From Bacteroidales bacterium (GTDB lineage: Bacteria; Bacteroidota; Bacteroidia; Bacteroidales; F082), in contig JAGCPH010000041.1 of NCBI GenBank assembly GCA_017645275.1, forward strand, positions 1 to 46,319: a stretch of DNA of 46,319 nucleotides, read 5' to 3'. How positions within the stretch are numbered: position 1 is the first letter of the stretch; the number at the start of each line of letters is the position of its first letter. The position numbers were made by a program, and so were the translations under genes. The notes beneath the pieces were generated by a model that saw only the letters and a list, made by a program, of their open reading frames with translations, had not been told where the DNA came from and searched no databases. Below, piece after piece: positions 26,442 through 41,263 of this stretch.

Positions 26442-29400
26442 TTAGAATGTATTTAAGTCAATCTGACGCATTGCGCAATAGAACTTAACCGTATGTTCAC
26501 CACCATTCACGTTGTCTTTCACATGGATAATGTAAAGACCGCTCGCGATAGGTGTACCTGCATGGTTCGTAAGATCCCAATCGATTGAAGTGACTGGTGA
26601 GTCTTTCTTGAACTGACGAATCTTGGTACCATTCACTGAGTAGATTGTCACTACGCACTGGTCTGGCACGTTGGCGATCTTCACTTTGTGTGTAAGAGCG
26701 TTCTTCTCGTAGTTAGCATATGCGTAGTACGGGTTAGGAACCACCTTGATCAGGTCGAGGTCAGAGTCACCCTTGTCGGCGTTGTTGTACTGAGGACCGT
26801 AACCCTTGGTAGTGAATGTGTAGTATGGGAGCCAACCTTCGTGATCGACATAGTCAACCAAAGCGTTGTATTCGGTCGGGTTGTCCACTGGATTGATGTC
26901 AAGTGTACGGTTGGCATAGCCCATTTTATATGGTTTCGACAAGCGTACTGAAATCTTGACAGGGTTGTCCTTTGGCAACCAATCCTTGCCTTCGACAGCC
27001 ATTGGCATACCAACCCATGTAGGTTGTTTCCAGATATCATAGATATAATCCGGGTGAACATCCTCTGCCATCATGAACTGACCGAACAAATACTTACCGC
27101 CGTCATAAGCTGGCATTCTTCTTAACATGCCTTCATATTCGCCAAGGTCTTGCACCGGGAATATATAGACAAAATGTTTCGCACCGAAAATTGCTGTTCC
27201 GTCTATAGCGTCAAAAATAACAGGGTCACTCAACTGCAATGATGCATCGCCATAAGCTGTTGATTCTTTCAACGCTGGTGGGTTGAACAACATATCACGT
27301 CCACCGAGTTCTGGATGGAATGAATCTTCGGTATAAACGATGTTCATACGTGCACCAGTTTCGATGTCGATTGCATATCCAGGGAACCATCCCATACCAA
27401 ATGGGCTAATGTATGCCGGTGATGTAGGATCATCACTTGGTTCCATTGTCAAAGCCTCTTGGTATGTTTCGGCTGCATATTTACCACTTCTGCTCACAGA
27501 AGGATGTCTACGCATTCCAAATGATTGCTGTCCGTTCTCGTTCAGTTTCTTATCGAAACCCGTCTCAACAACTGGACAACGTGTCCACAAGTTGGTATCA
27601 GCTGTGAGAACGATATCCACTGAACCGATATTGAAGAATACAGTATCAATCTTACAACTAATATCAAGAACCGGACCTGGTTTTGCTTTGTTGTTTCTGA
27701 CATAACTGCCTAAGATATATGGTGCCCATGTACCACCACCAATCTTTTCAAAGTCTTCATTCGGGTCGAATGCTCTTGAAGAACCACCTGTGCTACTTGA
27801 CATAGCGAAGTCGTTATTCGTAGCATCATCCTGGTCAGCATAAGTACCAGAACGGATCCAGTTCAAAGCATTAGATGCATCACCATCATAATCTTTGATA
27901 CCTGAGAGCCAACGATATGAACTGTCGGCATATGACACTGATGATGTTACAACACCATTATTTGGTAACAGACATTCGTAAACAGTATTAGCATCATCGC
28001 TAATTCCGTCTTTACCAATAGCTGTCGGTCCGACATTCCAAGGCTGCATGATATTTACAGAAATACCTCTTTCCAAGAAAATCTTTTCTCTAGAAAGCTC
28101 TGTCGTCGTATCTGACTCAAACTCCTCTTCTGTCACAAGGTCTTTCAAAGTCCATCTGAACACCTTCTTCTCGGCTTTGTCACCGACAACACTTGGATTT
28201 CCTGTAATATTTGTAATCTCTTTATTGTGGAAATCATGGTACCAGATAGCATAATCGGTTGCCACCACATTCAATGGGTCAATGATCTTCACATTGATAG
28301 GACCGTAACCTCTCTTATATGTTGGGTGATAGAGAACCGGATAGTCTGACATACCGAAGATATTTGTCTCGCTTGCCGGTGTACGTGACAACAGTTCTGT
28401 AATCTCGCTCTCTTCAAGTTCAACTTGATTACCACCGTTACCAATACCAGTCCATCTTGTGATGACAGGTTTGTCACCGTATGATGAATTGACAACAGTA
28501 CCGTTCACAATCTTGTGAGGAACTGCTGAATACATTTTGATGTTCTTACGACCTTCGAGATAAGGCTCTTTCTGTCCTTGACCGAGTGTTGTCTCAGGAT
28601 CGTATGTCATATAGTTGTTGTATGCGTAAGCAATTGCCAAGAAGTAGTATGTCTGATGGTTGACAAGACTTGGGTCGTTGTTCTTTGTAAACGCATCCTG
28701 TGTCACGACGAATGTATGGAGAATTCCGTTATCAGCACCGTCAACCATAAGGGTTGGGATACTATAACCGAGGTCGTCATCAAATTTAAAGTTGATGATT
28801 CTGCTTACATTGTTCTTAATGTCACACTGGAAAATCAGACGTGCCTTGGTAGGATCGTCGATATCAGCAACGCTAACTTCCTTAGATGCAAGTTGGTATA
28901 CTTTGTATCCCTCGAAGTGGAAGTATCTGTCGTACGGGTTGCCATCTGGGTCAAACTCAGGGATGTTAGGATCAAGCTCCTCGTAATCCTCGTTGGCATT
29001 GTTTGAAGACTCTGAATTTGACAGATAGACGATGAGCTTCTTGTCGAGCTCGCGGATTGTCAAGTCAGGGGCGTTAGGACCATCAAGAACTTTGAAGCAG
29101 TTATCGAACATAGCCTGGCACTTGTCGTCGACCTTACGGAGAAGTTCGACTGAAGCCCATGGTGAACCTGATGTTGAACGTGCCCACGGCACACCGAATG
29201 TGATGTAGTTAACAGCACCAGCCTTCAAGGTGAAAGGACCAGCTGACTGCATGAAACGACGGTCGTTGACAGGGTTTGGTTTACCATTGTCACCAGTTTC
29301 CTCACTCCAGTAGAAGCCGTTTTGGTTGAAGCCGCCACCAGGAGTTATACCGCCAGTACCCCAGTTACATGGGTCAGAGTCGTAAGGGAACATGAAGTCG

Positions 29401-30860
29401 CAGGCAGGACCCACTGTACCTGAGTTACCAGGAACAGCTGTACCACCGTACTGCATCTTAGCACCATTCTTCCAGATACCTCTAAGGAGAAGGTAGTACT
29501 CAGCAGCCTGTTTAGGGTCACCGTTAGCTGGGTTGTTGTTGTTATCGTGATACACGAAACGACGCATACCATAACGTTCGTCATCAACAACACCGTTGCC
29601 GAAGTTCACACCGTTGATACTCTCGTCGCAGAGCTGTGGGCCGTTGATGACGTTCCATGTTGTATCATTGCCGTGAATAGTATATCCGATAGTGTCGACA
29701 TAAGCGTATTTCGGGTTGTCAAGACCATCCGGGTCGAGGTAAGGGCCCTGGAAGAAGTCGACACCGACCGCTGGAGGGTTGGCACCGTAGGCTTCTGTCT
29801 CACCGTTACCATCGATAGGAGCACCGTTGTAACCGTAACCGAGACCACGTGACACGTCGCAACCTACATAGTCGTCCTTTGCATAACCAAGGTCAACGTC
29901 GGTCCATGGTGAGAAGTAAGTGTTTGTCAAGGTATAGGTTGAACGGTTGATGATCTCGTAGCTGTAGAATGTCATATTGTTGATCTCATCATTTGTCGAG
30001 AAGGCAAATGCTTGAGCTCTGATTTCCATACCTATAGCCGAACCACCTGACTCAGTGTGTGTGTTACCTTTATCATTGAACACCCACCAGAGTGTCTGGT
30101 CTCCCTTGATGACTTGGTCAGAGAGGATTGAGCCATGGACTGTACCCACATACTGTTCCTCCATTGTAGGAGTCTTTGTGTGGCAAAGTTCATTTGTGAT
30201 ATCATAGTAAGGATAGTCACCCATTGACGGGTCGTAGTTGCCATCTTCATCGTGATCGTAGAAAGGAGCGAGATAGTAGCTCATTCCTCTTGCCGGATCG
30301 CCATGGGCTGGCCAGTTTACGATGTTCAAAGGAATCTCATATCCTGGTGCAGGAATACCATTGTCATCGAGATGTGAGAGGAAGTCATCAACTTCACTAC
30401 GTGTGATGAGGTACATTTTGTCGTATTCCATACATGTGGCAGCGTCGATTGATGCTGAACCGTCGACTGTCAGAGGACCGGTCCAGAAGTCGTTACCACC
30501 GTTTAAGTCAGGACCCTGACGGAAACGGACAGCGGCGCACTTCAACTGGTTGTTGATGTCCATACCTGCAATCCACAGTGAACCAGCATACAATGATGTT
30601 GCTGAACCGTTGGCAGGAATGTAGTACTTTGAGCCTGAGCCGCCCGGAAGATCCCACCACATATCACCACCGGCATTGACACGCACTCTAGCATTGTTGA
30701 TGTTCAACCAAGCGAAAGTTGATGAAGGTGTACATCCAGCAGTGGTTTGTTTCAGACTCCGATACTGTTGATTCCCTGATGTAGGGTTCTTCTCGGCTCT
30801 TACTTCAGTTACACTTGCAATAAGAAATGCAACAGTTAATAAACGAATTATATTCTTCAT
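26442..30860 (-). CDS. Large secreted protein with T9SS/FlgD-like C-terminal domain
   Basis: A 1472-residue protein with a signal peptide (about 1-22, ending VRA). Early on there is a calcium-loop-like segment DHDEDGNYDPSMGDYPYYD (around 200-218), followed by long beta-rich stretches with many WG, NG and aromatic pairs. The last ~100 residues start LIKVVPNPYYAY and end in IDWDLTNHAGTPIASGLYIIHV...HTVKFYCAM, the pattern of FlgD-like/type IX sorting domains, plus a short extra tail (RQIDLNTF). No catalytic domain recognised. It lies 23 nt after the TonB receptor gene and before a PorV-like barrel, so it is probably a surface-exposed partner of that receptor, exported by T9SS. The ligand or substrate is unknown. 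Confidence 0.75.
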   Translation of the reverse strand: MKNIIRLLTVAFLIASVTEVRAEKNPTSGNQQYRSLKQTTAGCTPSSTFAWLNINNARVRVNAGGDMWWDLPGGSGSKYYIPANGSATSLYAGSLWIAGMDINNQLKCAAVRFRQGPDLNGGNDFWTGPLTVDGSASIDAATCMEYDKMYLITRSEVDDFLSHLDDNGIPAPGYEIPLNIVNWPAHGDPARGMSYYLAPFYDHDEDGNYDPSMGDYPYYDITNELCHTKTPTMEEQYVGTVHGSILSDQVIKGDQTLWWVFNDKGNTHTESGGSAIGMEIRAQAFAFSTNDEINNMTFYSYEIINRSTYTLTNTYFSPWTDVDLGYAKDDYVGCDVSRGLGYGYNGAPIDGNGETEAYGANPPAVGVDFFQGPYLDPDGLDNPKYAYVDTIGYTIHGNDTTWNVINGPQLCDESINGVNFGNGVVDDERYGMRRFVYHDNNNNPANGDPKQAAEYYLLLRGIWKNGAKMQYGGTAVPGNSGTVGPACDFMFPYDSDPCNWGTGGITPGGGFNQNGFYWSEETGDNGKPNPVNDRRFMQSAGPFTLKAGAVNYITFGVPWARSTSGSPWASVELLRKVDDKCQAMFDNCFKVLDGPNAPDLTIRELDKKLIVYLSNSESSNNANEDYEELDPNIPEFDPDGNPYDRYFHFEGYKVYQLASKEVSVADIDDPTKARLIFQCDIKNNVSRIINFKFDDDLGYSIPTLMVDGADNGILHTFVVTQDAFTKNNDPSLVNHQTYYFLAIAYAYNNYMTYDPETTLGQGQKEPYLEGRKNIKMYSAVPHKIVNGTVVNSSYGDKPVITRWTGIGNGGNQVELEESEITELLSRTPASETNIFGMSDYPVLYHPTYKRGYGPINVKIIDPLNVVATDYAIWYHDFHNKEITNITGNPSVVGDKAEKKVFRWTLKDLVTEEEFESDTTTELSREKIFLERGISVNIMQPWNVGPTAIGKDGISDDANTVYECLLPNNGVVTSSVSYADSSYRWLSGIKDYDGDASNALNWIRSGTYADQDDATNNDFAMSSSTGGSSRAFDPNEDFEKIGGGTWAPYILGSYVRNNKAKPGPVLDISCKIDTVFFNIGSVDIVLTADTNLWTRCPVVETGFDKKLNENGQQSFGMRRHPSVSRSGKYAAETYQEALTMEPSDDPTSPAYISPFGMGWFPGYAIDIETGARMNIVYTEDSFHPELGGRDMLFNPPALKESTAYGDASLQLSDPVIFDAIDGTAIFGAKHFVYIFPVQDLGEYEGMLRRMPAYDGGKYLFGQFMMAEDVHPDYIYDIWKQPTWVGMPMAVEGKDWLPKDNPVKISVRLSKPYKMGYANRTLDINPVDNPTEYNALVDYVDHEGWLPYYTFTTKGYGPQYNNADKGDSDLDLIKVVPNPYYAYANYEKNALTHKVKIANVPDQCVVTIYSVNGTKIRQFKKDSPVTSIDWDLTNHAGTPIASGLYIIHVKDNVNGGEHTVKFYCAMRQIDLNTF

Positions 30861-30883: not shown

Positions 30884-33800
30884 TTAGAAGTTAAATATCA
30901 AACCAACTCTGAACTGGCGTGGTGCAGCGTAGTTATACAAGTTATTGACATATAATCTGTATAACTCAGCGTATGAATCAGCATTTGTCTGGTTGGCAAT
31001 TTCACGCTGCCATTCAGGTGCTGAGAGGTAACCATCGTCATCAGGGTTACCGGTTGATGGGTACACGCCGACGACATTCTTTGCGTTGAACAAGTTAAGC
31101 ACTTGGATATAAACGTTCAAGTAAGCCTGACGTTTCTCACCATCTTTGTTCTGACCAATATTGAAGTAGATGTCCTTGTCAACACGGAGGTCGAAACGGA
31201 ATGCCCATGGGAGGCGTGATCCGTAGTAAGAACCCTTCAAGAGGTTAGTACCTGCAGAAATTGGTGAGTTGATGTTGCTTGATGCTGTGTAAGGAGTACC
31301 TGAACCACCCTGCATTGTGAGAGATGCACCTGTGTTGGCGAGCCACTGGATAGACTTCTTGCCTTCGCGTTTTGTGACAGGACCGTTATAGTCCTTACCG
31401 CTAGCAAAACGATAATCCAATGAAACGTTGAACTGGTGACGACGGTCCCAAGGCATTGGGAAGGTTGAGCGCAAGTTAGGAACACCTGCTGCAATCAAAG
31501 CACTCATGGTTGTTGTTGAAGCACCAGTAGCGTCGGTGTACTGCAGTGTGTATGATGCACGCAGACGGACGTTCTTGGTTCTACGCAAGTCGTATGTAGC
31601 TGTAAGACCCTTAACAGTACCGAAGTCCAAGTTGCTGTATGATGTGTAATCCTTAGGATAAGCACCTGTGTAACGGTACATCTGGATCATGTTACGGATC
31701 TCCTTGTAGTAAGCTGTGATTGTCATTGATGATGAGTTTGTAAGTTTCTGGGTGAAACCGAGCTCATAGTCAATGGTCTGTTCAGGCTTCAAAGCCGGGT
31801 TGTTGAGTGTTGCACTATTCTGTTCGAAATAGTAGTAGTCATAGATGTTTGTCTGGATGTTCGAAGGACGCTGTGTCAACACGTCATAGTGGGCGAAGAA
31901 CAATGCCTCATCCGAAATCGGGAATGAGAACGAGATACGAGGCATCACGCTCCATTGTGGTGTGTAGTCCTTGAATGACTTGACGTCAACGTGCTGCTGG
32001 TCTTTATCTTTAACCCATGCTGTGACACCGCTACCGGCGTTCAAAGTTGTAGGGTCAGCGATTTCAGCACCGTTGGCATCGTACCAAGTGTTATCATGAC
32101 GATAACCCATGATTTGTGTCACATTCTTGATATTGTCGACGTAGACTGCATAATCATCACCGATGTTGCTTGGGACGTCAGCTGTAGTTCCGTTAGGAAG
32201 AGTGATCTTACCGCCGCTCATCCTGTCGCCTACTGTATAGTAATCGTAGAGGATGTATGGGTCTTTCAACACTTTCTGGTTAGCATCGAAACGGTCAACA
32301 CGGACACCGAGGTTGAAGATAAGGTCTTTGAAAGCGAACTTATCCTGGATGTAACCTGCCATGTAGATAGGTCTGAACGAACCCACAGGACGTGTGTAGT
32401 TACCATTCTCGTCAACTTCTGTGAAGAAGTCTTCGAAGCTCGGCTGTTTCTTGAGTTTCTTACCCTTGTAGTCATAGCCGTTGTATGACACGTATTCGGT
32501 ACCGCCCTGTGTCAACTCGTCAGGAGTGAACATGCTGATGTCGAAGCCGTCGGCCAATGTTGCTGTATGCATCACACCATCCTTGTCATAATACTGGATG
32601 CTGTTGTTGTTGAAGTCGTATGAGTCGGTGTTGATCCAGTCGACGCCTGTGACGCTAAGTCCGAGGGCTGCACGAAGGTTCTTGTCGAACTGATACTGGT
32701 CGGCACCGTTGTACAATCTGTAGAATTTGATTGTATCGACGAATCCGTCATAGCTCACGATTTCAGGATTGTTGATATCCAACTGATCGATATGGAAGTT
32801 GGTGAGGTTTCTCATGACGTACCACAAGCTATAGCCGTTGATGCTATATGATCTGTTGTTACGCTGCTCGTACTGTAAACCGAGTTTGAGCTCGTGATTG
32901 CCCAGCGACATAGCTGTTGAGAGGTTGACGTTCAACTGGTCTCTCTCACTGTAGCCGTAGTTTGCCTGAACTCCACCAGGAGCTGCGTAAAGACCATAGA
33001 AATATGGGGCCTGGCTTGAGTTAAGCAAGCCTTGGCTGAGCTGCAACTCGTCGAAGTTTGTATAGTGACCTTCAGGATCCTGATACAAATCATACACTGT
33101 TGTGGTGTAGTTTGCAAGGAGCGGGTTAGCGTCTGATGGGCTGAATGCCACAAGAGTATCATAGTCCCATGATGCTGTGTGCCATACATTATTATAGGTG
33201 TGGCCGTTCACAGTGATAGCTGTATCCATGGTGTATGAAGGAGTCTTGTAGATGGTGTACTTACCGAGGTAACCATATTTCCAGATATCTTTCTTATGGT
33301 CTGGGTCGTACTGTGAGTAGTTGTAACGGGTATAGTCAACCTGCAAGCTATAGTAGAAGTTCTTGATCAGTGACGGACTGTCTGGTTCGCTTGGGAATCT
33401 CTGGGTGAAACGACCATAGACACGCCATGTCTGTTGATCATACATATAGTTCTTGTCGAAGTTGAAGTATTCCTGGTTACGGCTGAAGTTACGACCTCTT
33501 GATTTGTTGAAGCTACCGCCGATAGTCAAGTTGATGGTCTCAGTAGTACGGATGTTAATGTTACCAGTCCAAGCTGTTGACCAGTTGGCTGTGTTCTGTG
33601 AGTTTTTCACATATTCCATCGAGCCCATTCTGGTGTACTCACCATTAAAATAGACACCGTCACCTGATTCGCCGATACGGAGTGGATGCTGTTTGATGTA
33701 GTCCAACCATTCATTTGTAGCTTTGTAGTGACCGATAGCTGAAATCGCACCGTCTTTGTTACGTGTGAACTCACCAGAGAGGAAGAAACCGAGGAGTGCT

Positions 33801-34591
33801 GTTCCACTCTTCTTGCTCTTGATAAGTGGTCCCTGGATGTTCAAGCCAGCTCTGGTGTGGCCGTATCCGTCAATTGACTGCTCGATTTCCAAGCCGGCAC
33901 CAAAAGTTCTTGAAGGACCTCTTGTGGTCATACTGATGATACCACCGGTAACGTCACCATACTGAGCCGGGGTACCTGAAAGGATAACCTCGACTTGGTC
34001 GATAGCTGATTGAGGGACTGATGACTGGCCGATGACGCGGACACCGTCGATGTAGTACACAGTACCTTCTGAACGGTTACCACGCATGTTCATGTCACCA
34101 TCGCTTCCTTGGAACACACCACCGACGGTAGCAGCGACTGCTTCTGCCGAACGGTTAGGCATCTTAGCGATTTCCTCGGCGGTGATGGTAGCACCAGCTG
34201 AAGTCTGGTCCTTTGAAATCAAAGGCACCTTGTAATCGACGATCTCCACCTGATCAAGCATTTCTGACTGCATGCTCATTTCGATGTCGACGAATTGGAT
34301 CTTGTTAGCCGGAATGACAACGCCTTTTGTAACATAAGTGTTGTAACCGACGAAAGTTGCTCTCAGGTCGTAGGTTCCAGGAGGGATAGGGTTGATGTCG
34401 TAGTTACCGTCAAAGTCCGTACTAGCACCACCCACCTGCGTTCCACCGTTTTCCAAAACGACGTTGGCAAATGCGATAGGCTCGCCCGTGTCTTTGTCAG
34501 TAATGACACCCTTAAGACGACCTTGTTGTGCAAGTGCCAACGACCACGACGTCAGCACAATGCAGAGTGTTAATAGTAATTTTTTTAACAT
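30884..34591 (-). CDS. TonB-dependent outer-membrane receptor with carboxypeptidase-regulatory-like domain
   Basis: A 1235-residue receptor. Signal peptide (1-21, ending LAQ); CarboxypepD_reg-like domain (about 24-108: GRLKGVITDKDTGEPIAFANVVLE...GTYDLRATFVGY); TonB plug (about 130-240: NRSAEAVAATVGGVFQ, MRGNRSEGTVYYIDGVRV, ILSGTPAQYGDVTGGIISM); then a long barrel with DYELGFTQKL and a C-terminal FRVGLIFNF with the expected terminal Phe. Unlike SusC it has no SusD partner next to it; its partners are the 1472-residue secreted protein and a PorV-like barrel. It takes energy from the ExbB/ExbD/TonB system, two ExbD subunits of which open this window. The substrate cannot be told. Confidence 0.9.
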   Translation of the reverse strand: MLKKLLLTLCIVLTSWSLALAQQGRLKGVITDKDTGEPIAFANVVLENGGTQVGGASTDFDGNYDINPIPPGTYDLRATFVGYNTYVTKGVVIPANKIQFVDIEMSMQSEMLDQVEIVDYKVPLISKDQTSAGATITAEEIAKMPNRSAEAVAATVGGVFQGSDGDMNMRGNRSEGTVYYIDGVRVIGQSSVPQSAIDQVEVILSGTPAQYGDVTGGIISMTTRGPSRTFGAGLEIEQSIDGYGHTRAGLNIQGPLIKSKKSGTALLGFFLSGEFTRNKDGAISAIGHYKATNEWLDYIKQHPLRIGESGDGVYFNGEYTRMGSMEYVKNSQNTANWSTAWTGNINIRTTETINLTIGGSFNKSRGRNFSRNQEYFNFDKNYMYDQQTWRVYGRFTQRFPSEPDSPSLIKNFYYSLQVDYTRYNYSQYDPDHKKDIWKYGYLGKYTIYKTPSYTMDTAITVNGHTYNNVWHTASWDYDTLVAFSPSDANPLLANYTTTVYDLYQDPEGHYTNFDELQLSQGLLNSSQAPYFYGLYAAPGGVQANYGYSERDQLNVNLSTAMSLGNHELKLGLQYEQRNNRSYSINGYSLWYVMRNLTNFHIDQLDINNPEIVSYDGFVDTIKFYRLYNGADQYQFDKNLRAALGLSVTGVDWINTDSYDFNNNSIQYYDKDGVMHTATLADGFDISMFTPDELTQGGTEYVSYNGYDYKGKKLKKQPSFEDFFTEVDENGNYTRPVGSFRPIYMAGYIQDKFAFKDLIFNLGVRVDRFDANQKVLKDPYILYDYYTVGDRMSGGKITLPNGTTADVPSNIGDDYAVYVDNIKNVTQIMGYRHDNTWYDANGAEIADPTTLNAGSGVTAWVKDKDQQHVDVKSFKDYTPQWSVMPRISFSFPISDEALFFAHYDVLTQRPSNIQTNIYDYYYFEQNSATLNNPALKPEQTIDYELGFTQKLTNSSSMTITAYYKEIRNMIQMYRYTGAYPKDYTSYSNLDFGTVKGLTATYDLRRTKNVRLRASYTLQYTDATGASTTTMSALIAAGVPNLRSTFPMPWDRRHQFNVSLDYRFASGKDYNGPVTKREGKKSIQWLANTGASLTMQGGSGTPYTASSNINSPISAGTNLLKGSYYGSRLPWAFRFDLRVDKDIYFNIGQNKDGEKRQAYLNVYIQVLNLFNAKNVVGVYPSTGNPDDDGYLSAPEWQREIANQTNADSYAELYRLYVNNLYNYAAPRQFRVGLIFNF

Positions 34592-38140: not shown

Positions 38141-41100
38141 TTATCCGACGACGATGTTTATGATTTTTTTCGGGATGAAGATGACTTTGCGGATGTTGAC
38201 GCCTTCCAGCCATTTCTTGGCTTCAGGGGCGTTGACCACAGCGTTTTGCACTTCGTCCTGTTTGATGTCGAGAGGCAGCTCAAGGTCGAAACGTTTCTTT
38301 CCGTTGAATGATACAGGATATAAGAATGTGTTTTCGACCACGTTTTTCTCGTCGAACTCAGGGAATCGCTGATCTACCACGCTGTCGTTGTGACCCATCT
38401 GATGCCACAGCTCTTCGGCGATATGCGGTGCGTAAGGCGAAATCATGATTGCCAATGGCTCCAAGATCTCACGTTTGTTGCACTTCATATCGGTAAGTTC
38501 ATTGACGCAGATCATGAAGGCTGAGACGACAGTGTTGAATGAGATACGCTCGATGTCTTCCTCCTCTTTCTTGATGAGTTTGTGTAAAACTTTGAGTTCC
38601 TCTTTTGTAGCAGGCTCGTCGCTGACTTCGGAATACAGCTTCCAGAATTTCTTGAGGAAACGTGAAGTTCCTTCAATTCCTTGAGTATCCCATGGTTTCG
38701 ACTGCTCGAGAGGTCCGAGGAACATCTCGTAGAGACGCAGTGTGTCGGCGCCGTATTTCGCCACGAGGTCATCAGGGTTCTGGACGTTGAATTTCGACTT
38801 CGACATCTTTTCGATGAGCCAGTCGCAGACGAATATCTTGTTACCTTCTTTATCTTTTTCGCAAATGAAATGAGCGTTGTTGAGGTCGTCACGCCAGTTG
38901 CGGAAGGCGTGAATGTCGAGGATGTCGTTATGTACGATGTTGATATCCACTAACATAGGGTCGCTGAACTGTTCGATGTCAGGCAGGTTCTTTGACACGA
39001 AGACAGGTCCGCCGCTGTATTCCTCGCCAGGCACGAATGCCGGGACGTCTTTGCCCAGGCAGAAGTCTCTCATACGTTCACGCACGTAGTCGGTACCCTG
39101 CTCGAAGTCGTTGATAATGTCGACGATAGGCACCAGCAGGAGTCTGTAGCCTTTCTCATCGGCATACTGACGCCAGGCTTCTGCCACACGCTCAAGGTTG
39201 CCCATACGGTTGATCTCGATGATGAGACCTTTTTCAGGGCAGAAGAAGTCGAAACGACGACGACCGTCTTTGAAATCGCGGATGAATTTAAGACCCAACT
39301 TATTGTTATTCAAACGTTTCCACACTGCATACTCGCAAATCTTCTCAAGGTTGACGCGGTAGGCTATGCTTGAACGGCCTTGAATCATACCTTGGTTGAC
39401 CATCTTCTGGAAAGGCTCTTCTTTGCATGCCAATCCGAGGTCGAAGAGGAATTTGTTCCAGAAACGGCTATAGATTAGGTGACCTGTGGCATGTTCGGCG
39501 CCTCCGATGTAGAGGTCGACGTTCTGCCAGTAGTCATTAGCCTCGCGGCTGAAGTATTCTTTGTCGTTGTGCGGGTCTTCGTAACGGAGGTAATATCCGC
39601 TAGAGCCAGCAAAACCTGGCATTGTGTTAGTCTCGATAGGATAGCCTTCCTCGGTGACCCAGTTTTTAGCTCTTGCTAAAGGCGGCTCGCCGTTTTCGGT
39701 CGGCTTGTAGGCGTCGATTGAAGGCAGCTCGAGAGGCAGTTTTGACTCATCCATTGTATAAGGCATTCCGTCCTTGTAATATATCGGGAATGGCTCGCCC
39801 CAATAACGTTGGCGGCTGAAGATAGCGTCACGCAATCTATAATTTGTCTTGCCCTTACCGATGCCGCGTTTCTCAAGTTCCTCGATCATGCGGAGGATAG
39901 CTTTTTTCACTGTGAGACCGTTGAGGAACTCCGAGTTCACCAGCACACCTTCTTTGGCGTCGAACGACTCTGTCCAAGTGGCCGGGTCGGACGGTTCCTC
40001 GCCAGGTTTCGCCACCACCTGAATGATAGGCAGGTTGAAGTGACGTGCGAAGGCGAAGTCGCGGCTGTCGTGGGCTGGCACTGCCATGATGGCGCCGGTG
40101 CCGTAGCCCATGAGGACGTAGTCAGAGATCCAGATCGGGATGCGTGTGCCGTTGAACGGGTTCACTGCGTAAGAGCCTGTGAACACGCCGCTCACCTTCT
40201 TCACCTCCGACATACGTTCACGCTCGGAGCGGTTCTTTGCCCAGGTGACGTATTCATTGACAGCGTCACGCTGCTCGTCGGTGGTGAGCTGATCTATCAT
40301 CTCGTGTTCAGGTGCAAGCACCATGAAGGTGACACCGAACAAGGTGTCGGCACGAGTCGTAAACACTTCAAAATCAATATCTTTATCAGCTACTTTGAAG
40401 AAAATCGAGGCACCCATTGACTTGCCTATCCAGTTACGCTGCACGTCTTTTATTGACTCTGTCCAGTCGAGGGTCTCGAGGCCTTGGAGGAGACGCTCGG
40501 CGTAGGCAGTGATACGCAACAGCCACTGTTTCATCGACTTACGAATCACTGGGTAGCCGCCGCGCACTGAGAGGCCGTCCTGCACCTCGTCGTTGGCGAG
40601 CACCGTGCCAAGCTCAGGGCACCAGTTCACCATAGTGTCGGCGAGATAAGCGAGGCGGTAGTTCATCAGTGTTTCCTGCTGTTCGCGCTCGCCCATGGCG
40701 TTCCATTCGTTGGCGGTGAGGCTCAACGGCTTTGTGCAAGCCACGTCGAGGCCTTCGGTTCCGTTTTTGCTAAGATAATCAACGAGTTCGGAAATCGGGC
40801 GGGCTTTCTGGCATTTGTTGCAATAGTAAGAGTTGAACAGCTGGATGAAAGTCCACTGCGTCCACTTATAATATTTAGGGTCGCTGGTGCGCACCTCGCG
40901 GTTCCAGTCGTAGGAGAAGCCGATCTTATCCATCTGTTCACGATAGCGGTTGATGTTTTTCTCCGTCGTGACAGCCGGATGTGTGCCAGTCTGGATTGCA
41001 TATTGCTCTGCCGGAAGGCCGTAGGCGTCGTAACCCATCGGGTGAAGCACGTTGAAGCCCTTCAAACGTTTGTAACGCGCGAAGATGTCAGATGCTATAT

Positions 41101-41263
41101 ATCCGAGAGGATGGCCCACATGCAGACCCGCTCCCGAAGGATACGGAAACATGTCGAGCACATAAAACTTCGGCTTGTTATGGTCAACCTCTACCTGGTA
41201 AATCTTGTTCTCACGCCAGTATTCCTGCCATTTCTTTTCGATTTCTTCAAAATTATATTCCAT
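38141..41263 (-). CDS. leuS: Leucyl-tRNA synthetase with an inserted DUF559-like nuclease-fold domain
   Basis: Class I synthetase for leucine. HIGH equivalent HVGH at 48-51; CNKCQKA and WNAM segments normal for Bacteroidota LeuRS; editing domain with [22 protein letters not shown] at 819-823; C-terminal anticodon domain. At 1040 residues it is about 100 longer than usual for the phylum. Extra residues about 637-752 (about 39008-39355 of the window) lie after [12 protein letters not shown] and before PVFVSKNL. They read [35 protein letters not shown], and [21 protein letters not shown], the layout of DUF559/Vsr-like PD-(D/E)XK folds. Asp672 and Glu683 are present, but the following Asp is Asn685 and the usual GxxH is RMGN. 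Synthetase motifs are intact, so the enzyme is probably active. Confidence 0.95.

What the first reader, a model, noticed from the sequence alone, without database searches (positions are those of the whole stretch)
39008..39355. Leucyl-tRNA synthetase carries an inserted DUF559/Vsr-like nuclease-fold domain
Between [12 protein letters not shown] and PVFVSKNL, about 115 residues are present that ordinary Bacteroidota LeuRS do not need. They show [10 protein letters not shown], then [16 protein letters not shown], then [17 protein letters not shown], the strand-helix order of the DUF559 group of PD-(D/E)XK folds. An endonuclease-type module inside an essential synthetase could be a domesticated mobile nuclease, an RNA-binding add-on, or a selfish element kept because the host gene cannot be lost. 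Asp672 and Glu683 are kept, while the third acidic residue is Asn and the GxxH motif is lost, so it may bind nucleic acid without cutting.
Basis: partly seen in the sequence, partly recalled or inferred. Interest (0 to 1): 0.78.

Follow-up and report, generated by a model that had tools for sequence, protein, structure and literature searches.

The report
Nuclease domain inside leucyl-tRNA synthetase
In some gut Bacteroidales the enzyme that loads leucine onto tRNA carries a complete nuclease-type domain in a loop next to its active site; close relatives keep it, have deleted it or carry the ordinary short loop instead, so an essential enzyme seems to have absorbed and largely tamed a nuclease.

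Summary
Residues 636-753 of a 1040-aa LeuRS (window 39005-39358, minus strand) form a DUF559-type PD-(D/E)XK domain: over Pfam's cut-off on its own (just under it in the whole protein), 99% profile-profile match to canonical DUF559, PDB 3hrl at 3.5e-9, confident alpha-beta-beta-beta-alpha-beta model (fold search not obtained). It sits in the leucine-specific domain before KMSKS. It is not routine LeuRS: of 90 LeuRS-positive genomes of the genus 73 have it, 16 lack it, 1 is unresolved; in Bacteroidales it is patchy, and one sampled family outside the order has it. Site inserts tested form one clade. Losses show as in-frame deletion scars and, in two genomes, as an ordinary-type patch. Asp672 and Glu683 are kept; the third residue is Lys in most other families sampled, Asn in most of this genus. 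Omega is about 0.10. Related palindrome-ended DUF559 elements with an intact motif lie in frame in LeuRS (two other sites), MetH and acetyl-CoA synthetase. Best reading: an old, optional, domesticated nuclease module, probably non-cutting here, serving as a nucleic-acid-binding or structural extension. Its function is untested.

The parts
38141..41263 (-). leucyl-tRNA synthetase gene (leuS), 1040 aa
39005..39358 (-). inserted DUF559-type PD-(D/E)XK domain with its linkers (LeuRS residues 636-753)
39098..39340 (-). DUF559 (PF04480) match; the only one at E <= 0.001 in the held assembly (82% complete)
39248..39250 (-). codon of Asp672 (first catalytic position)
39215..39217 (-). codon of Glu683 (second catalytic position)
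39209..39211 (-). codon of Asn685 (third position; Lys in most other families sampled)
38957..39007 (-). 17 residues at and after the end of the insert (753-769) that differ with insert state: rest of the 'plus' haplotype
38795..38809 (-). KMSKS catalytic loop (residues 819-823), after the leucine-specific domain
40370..40387 (-). CP1 editing-domain position (about residues 293-298) where some relatives carry a second, motif-intact DUF559 element; empty in the window

Best explanation
Shown: a whole DUF559-type nuclease domain lies in frame in the leucine-specific domain of LeuRS. The inserts at this site that were put in a tree form one clade; they occur in many Bacteroidales families and one sampled family outside the order, follow the gene's own history broadly but not exactly, are lost by in-frame deletion and are absent from two nested genomes with an ordinary-type patch, and are under purifying selection in this genus. 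Inferred: it descends from a DUF559 nuclease that entered LeuRS without any splicing device and was tolerated because the leucine-specific domain is a variable, mobile surface module. In the window the catalytic Lys is Asn, so the domain most likely no longer cuts and serves as a folded nucleic-acid-binding or structural extension, touching tRNA-Leu or steadying the KMSKS loop. It is useful but dispensable.
For: Identity; model pLDDT 84.4, pTM 0.77, D672 in the second strand, E683 and N685 in the third. Site: between residues aligned to T. thermophilus LeuRS 578 and 633. One clade, 18 site inserts against 33 other DUF559, 100/99. Optional: 73 with, 16 without, 1 unresolved of 90; 13 of the 16 carry deletion scars. 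Constraint: omega 0.10 for the insert, 0.034 upstream, 0.068 downstream (67 of 435 pairs). D kept in 94 of 97 distinct inserts, E in 94 of 97. The leucine-specific domain buttresses KMSKS and guides tRNA, and is absent from some LeuRSs (PMC5059758, passages). Precedent: FASTKD4, a Vsr-like fold that binds RNA and, its authors suggest, has lost nuclease activity (PMC11879112, passages).
Against: The constraint may only mean that the domain must fold so as not to spoil LeuRS; it is about three times weaker than upstream. Repeated loss shows that any function is dispensable. Kept D and E fit a metal site, so cutting is not excluded (some restriction enzymes use other third residues; recalled). 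No tRNA contact was modelled: the full-length fold and the structure search were never accepted by the full queue. The site-insert clade is separate from today's palindrome-ended elements, so only shared family, not descent from them, is shown.
Confidence: 0.6

Rival explanations
1. Neutral passenger: the domain does nothing, and the purifying selection is only what an internal domain needs to fold and not poison LeuRS.
For: In-frame losses inside the genus; a far-decayed segment at the same site in family f72 (L241), still about full length; catalytic residues lost in the f36 and f11 rows.
Against: Omega about 0.10; in 62 distinct genus-type inserts FDFFC is kept at 97% or more and the E-I-N stretch at 80% or more; presence in many families.
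Confidence: 0.22
2. Still a working nuclease: the D-E-K form (and perhaps D-E-N) cleaves DNA or tRNA under some condition, so LeuRS is a dual enzyme.
For: D-E-K, the canonical PD-(D/E)XK triad, in 40 of 97 distinct inserts, over 14 family codes.
Against: The window has Asn; none of the 34 inserts of A2 shows the DUF559 DGxxH motif; a nuclease fused to an abundant synthetase should be costly (inference).
Confidence: 0.12
3. Homing without splicing: the nuclease cuts insert-less leuS alleles and its own haplotype is copied in.
For: Two haplotypes: residues 753-769 are 52-53% alike in like-state pairs of different families (1930 pairs), 29% in unlike-state pairs of different families (1953) and 28% in ten unlike-state pairs of the same family outside f1; a patch in this cassette differs from its backbone in L277; insert data reject the LeuRS backbone tree, AU p 0.00085.
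Against: All 23 same-family unlike-state pairs together give 41%, because the 13 pairs of family f1 involve L018, which keeps plus-type residues. The one patch with a readable direction lacks the insert. Insert and backbone identities correlate (r 0.84 over 666 pairs). Linked residues may be structural co-adaptation.
Confidence: 0.06

Closest known systems
DUF559 (Pfam PF04480; NCBIfam NF007294) endonuclease-like proteins, PDB 3hrl
   Same: whole domain aligns; D and E kept; PD-(D/E)XK order in the model
   Different: inside LeuRS; DGxxH lost; third residue Lys or Asn instead of Asp
Vsr / EDxHD homing endonucleases (I-Bth0305I)
   Same: nucleases that invade genes; active-site motif described as similar to PD-(D/E)XK (PMC3943268, passages)
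   Different: those are encoded in introns, inteins or free ORFs; here no splicing element is seen and the host protein keeps the domain
RAP domain region of FASTKD4
   Same: Vsr-like cavity used for RNA binding; Asn beside the putative catalytic Asp (PMC11879112, passages)
   Different: mitochondrial RNA-binding protein, not inserted into a synthetase
Leucine-specific domain of bacterial LeuRS
   Same: same place before KMSKS; variable and sometimes absent (PMC5059758, passages)
   Different: mostly 34 residues from NQG to HVD in insert-less Bacteroidales; about 141-148 here
Palindrome-ended in-frame DUF559 elements (found here in relatives)
   Same: same domain family, in frame inside housekeeping enzymes including LeuRS
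   Different: intact DGxxH-type motif, hairpin-like ends, separate clade

Membership tests
DUF559 (PF04480) | profile score over the curated cut-off | tested here: met
   23.4-23.5 bits on the segment, cut-off 20.6; but 19.5 in the full protein
DUF559 (PF04480) | PD-(D/E)XK core order of strands and helices | tested here: met
   AF2 model of the insert; comparison with solved folds not obtained
DUF559 (PF04480) | D...E-x-D-G-x-x-H motif of the canonical members seen here | tested here: not met
   D and E kept, D to N or K, G and H lost
Bacterial leucyl-tRNA synthetase | TIGR00396 over cut-off, KMSKS present, single open frame | tested here: met
Intein with homing endonuclease | splicing (Hint) domain around the nuclease | tested here: not met
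   no such family among the 6 Pfam matches (E up to 1) of the 1040-aa protein; insert only 118 aa
Homing endonuclease | insert-bearing and insert-less alleles at one site, with linked flanking sequence | tested here: met
   co-adaptation could give the same link
Homing endonuclease | cuts the insert-less allele and is copied into it | not testable with these tools
   needs biochemistry
Palindrome-ended in-frame DUF559 element | hairpin-forming ends | tested here: not met
   only two short inverted repeats, arms 106 and 157 nt apart, in 38900-39460
Palindrome-ended in-frame DUF559 element | groups with those elements in the domain tree | tested here: not met
   separate clade, 100/99; the program warned of long branches in this tree

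The most novel reading that the evidence does not exclude
Bacteroidia host a class of protein-invading elements that need no splicing: DUF559 nucleases with hairpin ends jump in frame into essential enzymes (LeuRS, MetH, acetyl-CoA synthetase) and are simply translated as extra domains. The leucine-specific-domain insert of LeuRS is an ancient, tamed member of that kind of event that has become an optional working part of the synthetase.
Probability: 0.35. Interest if true: 0.85.

Novelty: new variant of a known kind. Interest (0 to 1): 0.66.

Why it matters
Inteins and introns are held to let nucleases enter conserved genes because they splice out (PMC3943268, passages). Here a nuclease-type domain stays in an essential enzyme, with relatives that carry it, relatives with deletion scars, relatives with an ordinary-type patch, and kin elements that still look mobile. 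This gives a testable natural series from invader to enzyme part, and a test of how much foreign protein a synthetase tolerates next to its catalytic loop. It also warns that DUF559 matches inside long ORFs can be genuine.

Tried and rejected
Assembly error or frameshift artefact: rejected; the ORF is open and the insert recurs in many genomes.

Routine LeuRS segment: rejected for the order and class samples; the phylum was not searched. In the 108-row LeuRS tree 38 of 103 scored rows have the insert, with 15 changes of state; the set was chosen to be rich in positives. L019 and L020 were dropped and L015, L030 and L233 had no measured length; rows of intermediate length (such as L016, L026, L199, L218, L228) were counted as without.

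Intein: rejected. Recent transposition of the window's copy: no palindromic ends, base composition within the range of the gene. Other DUF559 genes in the held assembly (82% complete): none at E 0.001. Defence system: no PADLOC match at E 0.01 for the insert or for L148.

Led nowhere: full-length LeuRS model and fold search (queue full each time), viral scan with A2.

Literature, by search listing only unless said: DUF559 with tRNA synthetase 0 papers; DUF559 alone 14 papers; leucine-specific domain with LeuRS 12; in-frame, palindromic and synthetase terms 2; palindromic element terms 21, of which 15 listed; EDxHD/Vsr/homing 25, of which 12 listed; LeuRS with inserted-domain and endonuclease terms 2; palindromic in-frame mobile terms 30, of which 12 listed. 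Passages were seen of PMC3943268, PMC11879112, PMC5059758 and PMC8987985 (nothing that bears on this). That this insert is not in print rests on these searches alone.

Full report
What is there. The minus-strand ORF 38141-41263 encodes a 1040-aa bacterial LeuRS. Between [12 protein letters not shown] and FVSKNL lies a stretch of about 118 residues (636-753) that insert-less relatives lack. On its own it passes the Pfam cut-off for DUF559; in the whole protein it falls just short. An alignment of 34 such inserts (A2) settles the identity: 29 of 34 match DUF559, the profile finds PDB 3hrl, 'Endonuclease-Like Protein', at 3.5e-9 with the next hit at 0.23, and hhalign aligns 99 columns with 33 canonical DUF559 domains at 99.2% against 0.6% for a column-shuffled control. 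The AF2 model of the insert (34-row alignment; pLDDT 84.4, pTM 0.77) runs helix, three strands, helix, strand, helix, helix. A comparison of this model with solved folds could not be run.

Where it sits. T. thermophilus LeuRS aligns up to its residue 578 (our 628) and again from 633 (our 815), so the insert is in the leucine-specific region. That domain moves between catalytic states, buttresses the KMSKS loop, guides tRNA, and is missing in some LeuRSs (PMC5059758, passages). In the fetched Bacteroidales set the stretch from NQG to HVD is mostly 34 residues without the insert and 141-148 with it, where both marks were found correctly (one positive row, L190, was mismeasured there at 93 and is corrected by the second measure).

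Who has it. In the genus, LeuRS was found in 90 of 99 genomes; counted by hand from the match ranges, 73 have the insert, 16 lack it and 1 is unresolved. In a sample of 393 Bacteroidales genomes 67 match the insert model at E 0.001; the 30 best loci were opened and all 30 are LeuRS with the break at the same residue, one of them (L138) cut off inside the insert. Weaker matches among the 67 are largely ordinary DUF559 proteins or other sites and were not all opened. In a sample of 395 genomes of the class, four genomes of one family outside the order have it at the same place. Named holders (80 best of 98 kept) are mostly ruminant and other gut Bacteroidales MAGs, among them 'bacterium F082' and 'Candidatus Limimorpha equi'. 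In a tree of 18 site inserts and 33 other DUF559 domains the site inserts are one side of one branch, 100/99; the program warned of long branches there.

How it comes and goes. In the LeuRS tree the states mix down to the genus: 38 of 103 scored rows positive, 15 changes. I read the site in all 16 insert-less genomes of the window's genus. Nine keep a short scar beginning RVNKxKM; four keep a longer scar with both ends of the insert recognisable and the nuclease core gone, in frame; one (L018) has a short site with plus-type residues after it; two (L276, L277) have an ordinary site. In a backbone tree without this region those two lie among insert bearers (with L004, L005, L006 and L013, support 100 for the six). 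In L277 (the only one profiled) residues 626-700 match the best genus member at 64-68%, against 100% in the windows directly before and after and 84-100% elsewhere in the part examined. The best other families reach 100%, 72% and 76% in the three windows of the patch, so the donor is not identified. I read this as a short exchanged patch between two conserved blocks; MAG chimerism is not fully excluded.

Linked residues. Residues 753-769 (identity means): plus/plus of different families 0.53 (609 pairs), minus/minus of different families 0.52 (1321), plus/minus of different families 0.29 (1953), plus/minus of the same family 0.41 (23), of which the ten outside f1 give 0.28, the lowest of 113 windows (one window was listed twice); plus/plus same family 0.67 (94), minus/minus same family 0.70 (5). 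The 13 f1 pairs all involve L018, which keeps plus-type residues. Rows of intermediate length and four outgroup rows were left out. This is haplotype exchange or co-adaptation of neighbouring residues; the data do not fully separate the two. One search shows the same for single pairs.

Inheritance. Insert and backbone identities correlate (r 0.84 over 666 pairs; 0.53 for 574 between-family pairs), and the two trees agree in broad family groups. They are not the same: insert data reject the backbone topology (AU 0.00085) and the reverse holds too (29 rows; L176 and L241 left out; L241 also left out). So it is mostly vertical with some exchange; short alignments and long branches may add to the conflict.

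Selection and active site. From 30 of 64 distinct genus-type inserts, 67 of 435 pairs were usable: ratio of mean dN to mean dS 0.10 for the insert, 0.034 for 200 codons upstream, 0.068 for 240 downstream. Of 97 distinct inserts 49 are D-E-N (14 from genus-coded loci, 34 from named loci that look alike by motif, 1 in a MAG labelled Methanobrevibacter), 40 D-E-K, 2 D-E-R and 6 other. The genus contains K forms too (L014; L013 is D-D-K). The kept D and E with Asn suggest a retained fold or binding site more than cutting, but do not prove it.

Kin elements. Among the best-scoring loci of the class search 25 more were opened (L147-L171). Fifteen lie in frame inside long enzymes: LeuRS editing domain (6), LeuRS ahead of the leucine-specific domain (1), MetH (5), acetyl-CoA synthetase (2), and one that I recognise as TsaB from memory. 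Ten are small or terminal ORFs. Eight proteins were named by NCBIfam: five times LeuRS or MetH from these loci and L182 show DUF559 (NF007294) beside the host family, though below that model's own cut-off of 218 bits; for the two acetyl-CoA synthetases it was not among the 25 families shown. LeuRS and acetyl-CoA synthetase pass their cut-offs; MetH, cut by the locus ends, does not. One search looked for the DGxxH-type motif in 25 loci and printed the 20 that have it (L151 and L204 are the same gene); by eye most show GC-rich hairpins such as CCCCTCTCC...GGAGAGGGG near both ends, translated into peptides like LTPNPSPKERG and PLSFGEGERGGE. No folding was computed for them. In the domain tree these elements mix across host genes (99/94), apart from 9 of 10 free-standing DUF559 rows and from the site inserts. 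Three LeuRS genes carry both kinds (L182, L189, L196). Mobility is inferred from this mixing; no empty-site proof was made.

Verdict. The finding is real and richer than first described. I hold the domain identity near certain, the domesticated and optional reading at 0.6, passenger at 0.22, working nuclease at 0.12, splice-free homing at 0.06. Precedent for a Vsr-like fold used for RNA binding is FASTKD4 (PMC11879112, passages). The usual rule that homing nucleases invade conserved genes thanks to self-splicing partners is stated in PMC3943268 (passages).

Noticed in passing
L147-L171 (e.g. L148, L159, L169) and L182, L189, L196, L197, L202, L204: DUF559 elements with intact motif and GC-rich hairpin-like ends lie in frame inside LeuRS editing domain, MetH and acetyl-CoA synthetase of several Bacteroidia: possibly a splice-free mobile element class.
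   Followed up: partly
L182, L189, L196: LeuRS genes of about 1164-1197 aa carry two DUF559 domains at two sites.
   Followed up: partly
L241 (G094, family f72): Same-site segment of about 109 residues that has lost nearly all DUF559 likeness but kept its length.
   Followed up: no
L199 (G088), L228 (G106), L026 (G035): Other LeuRS have longer leucine-specific domains with sequence that by eye is unlike DUF559.
   Followed up: no
L165: A DUF559 domain is continuous with the start of what looks like HisF (recognised from memory) in one 382-aa open frame.
   Followed up: no
G384:C130:598-1863: A second, divergent LeuRS-like gene (45% identity) in a genome of family f117; could also be contamination.
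   Followed up: no
L043: A MAG labelled Methanobrevibacter carries this Bacteroidales-type leuS; probably a contaminating contig.
   Followed up: no
window 26442-30860 (-): A 1472-aa ORF without a Pfam match at 1e-5, next to a TonB-dependent receptor (30884-34591).
   Followed up: no
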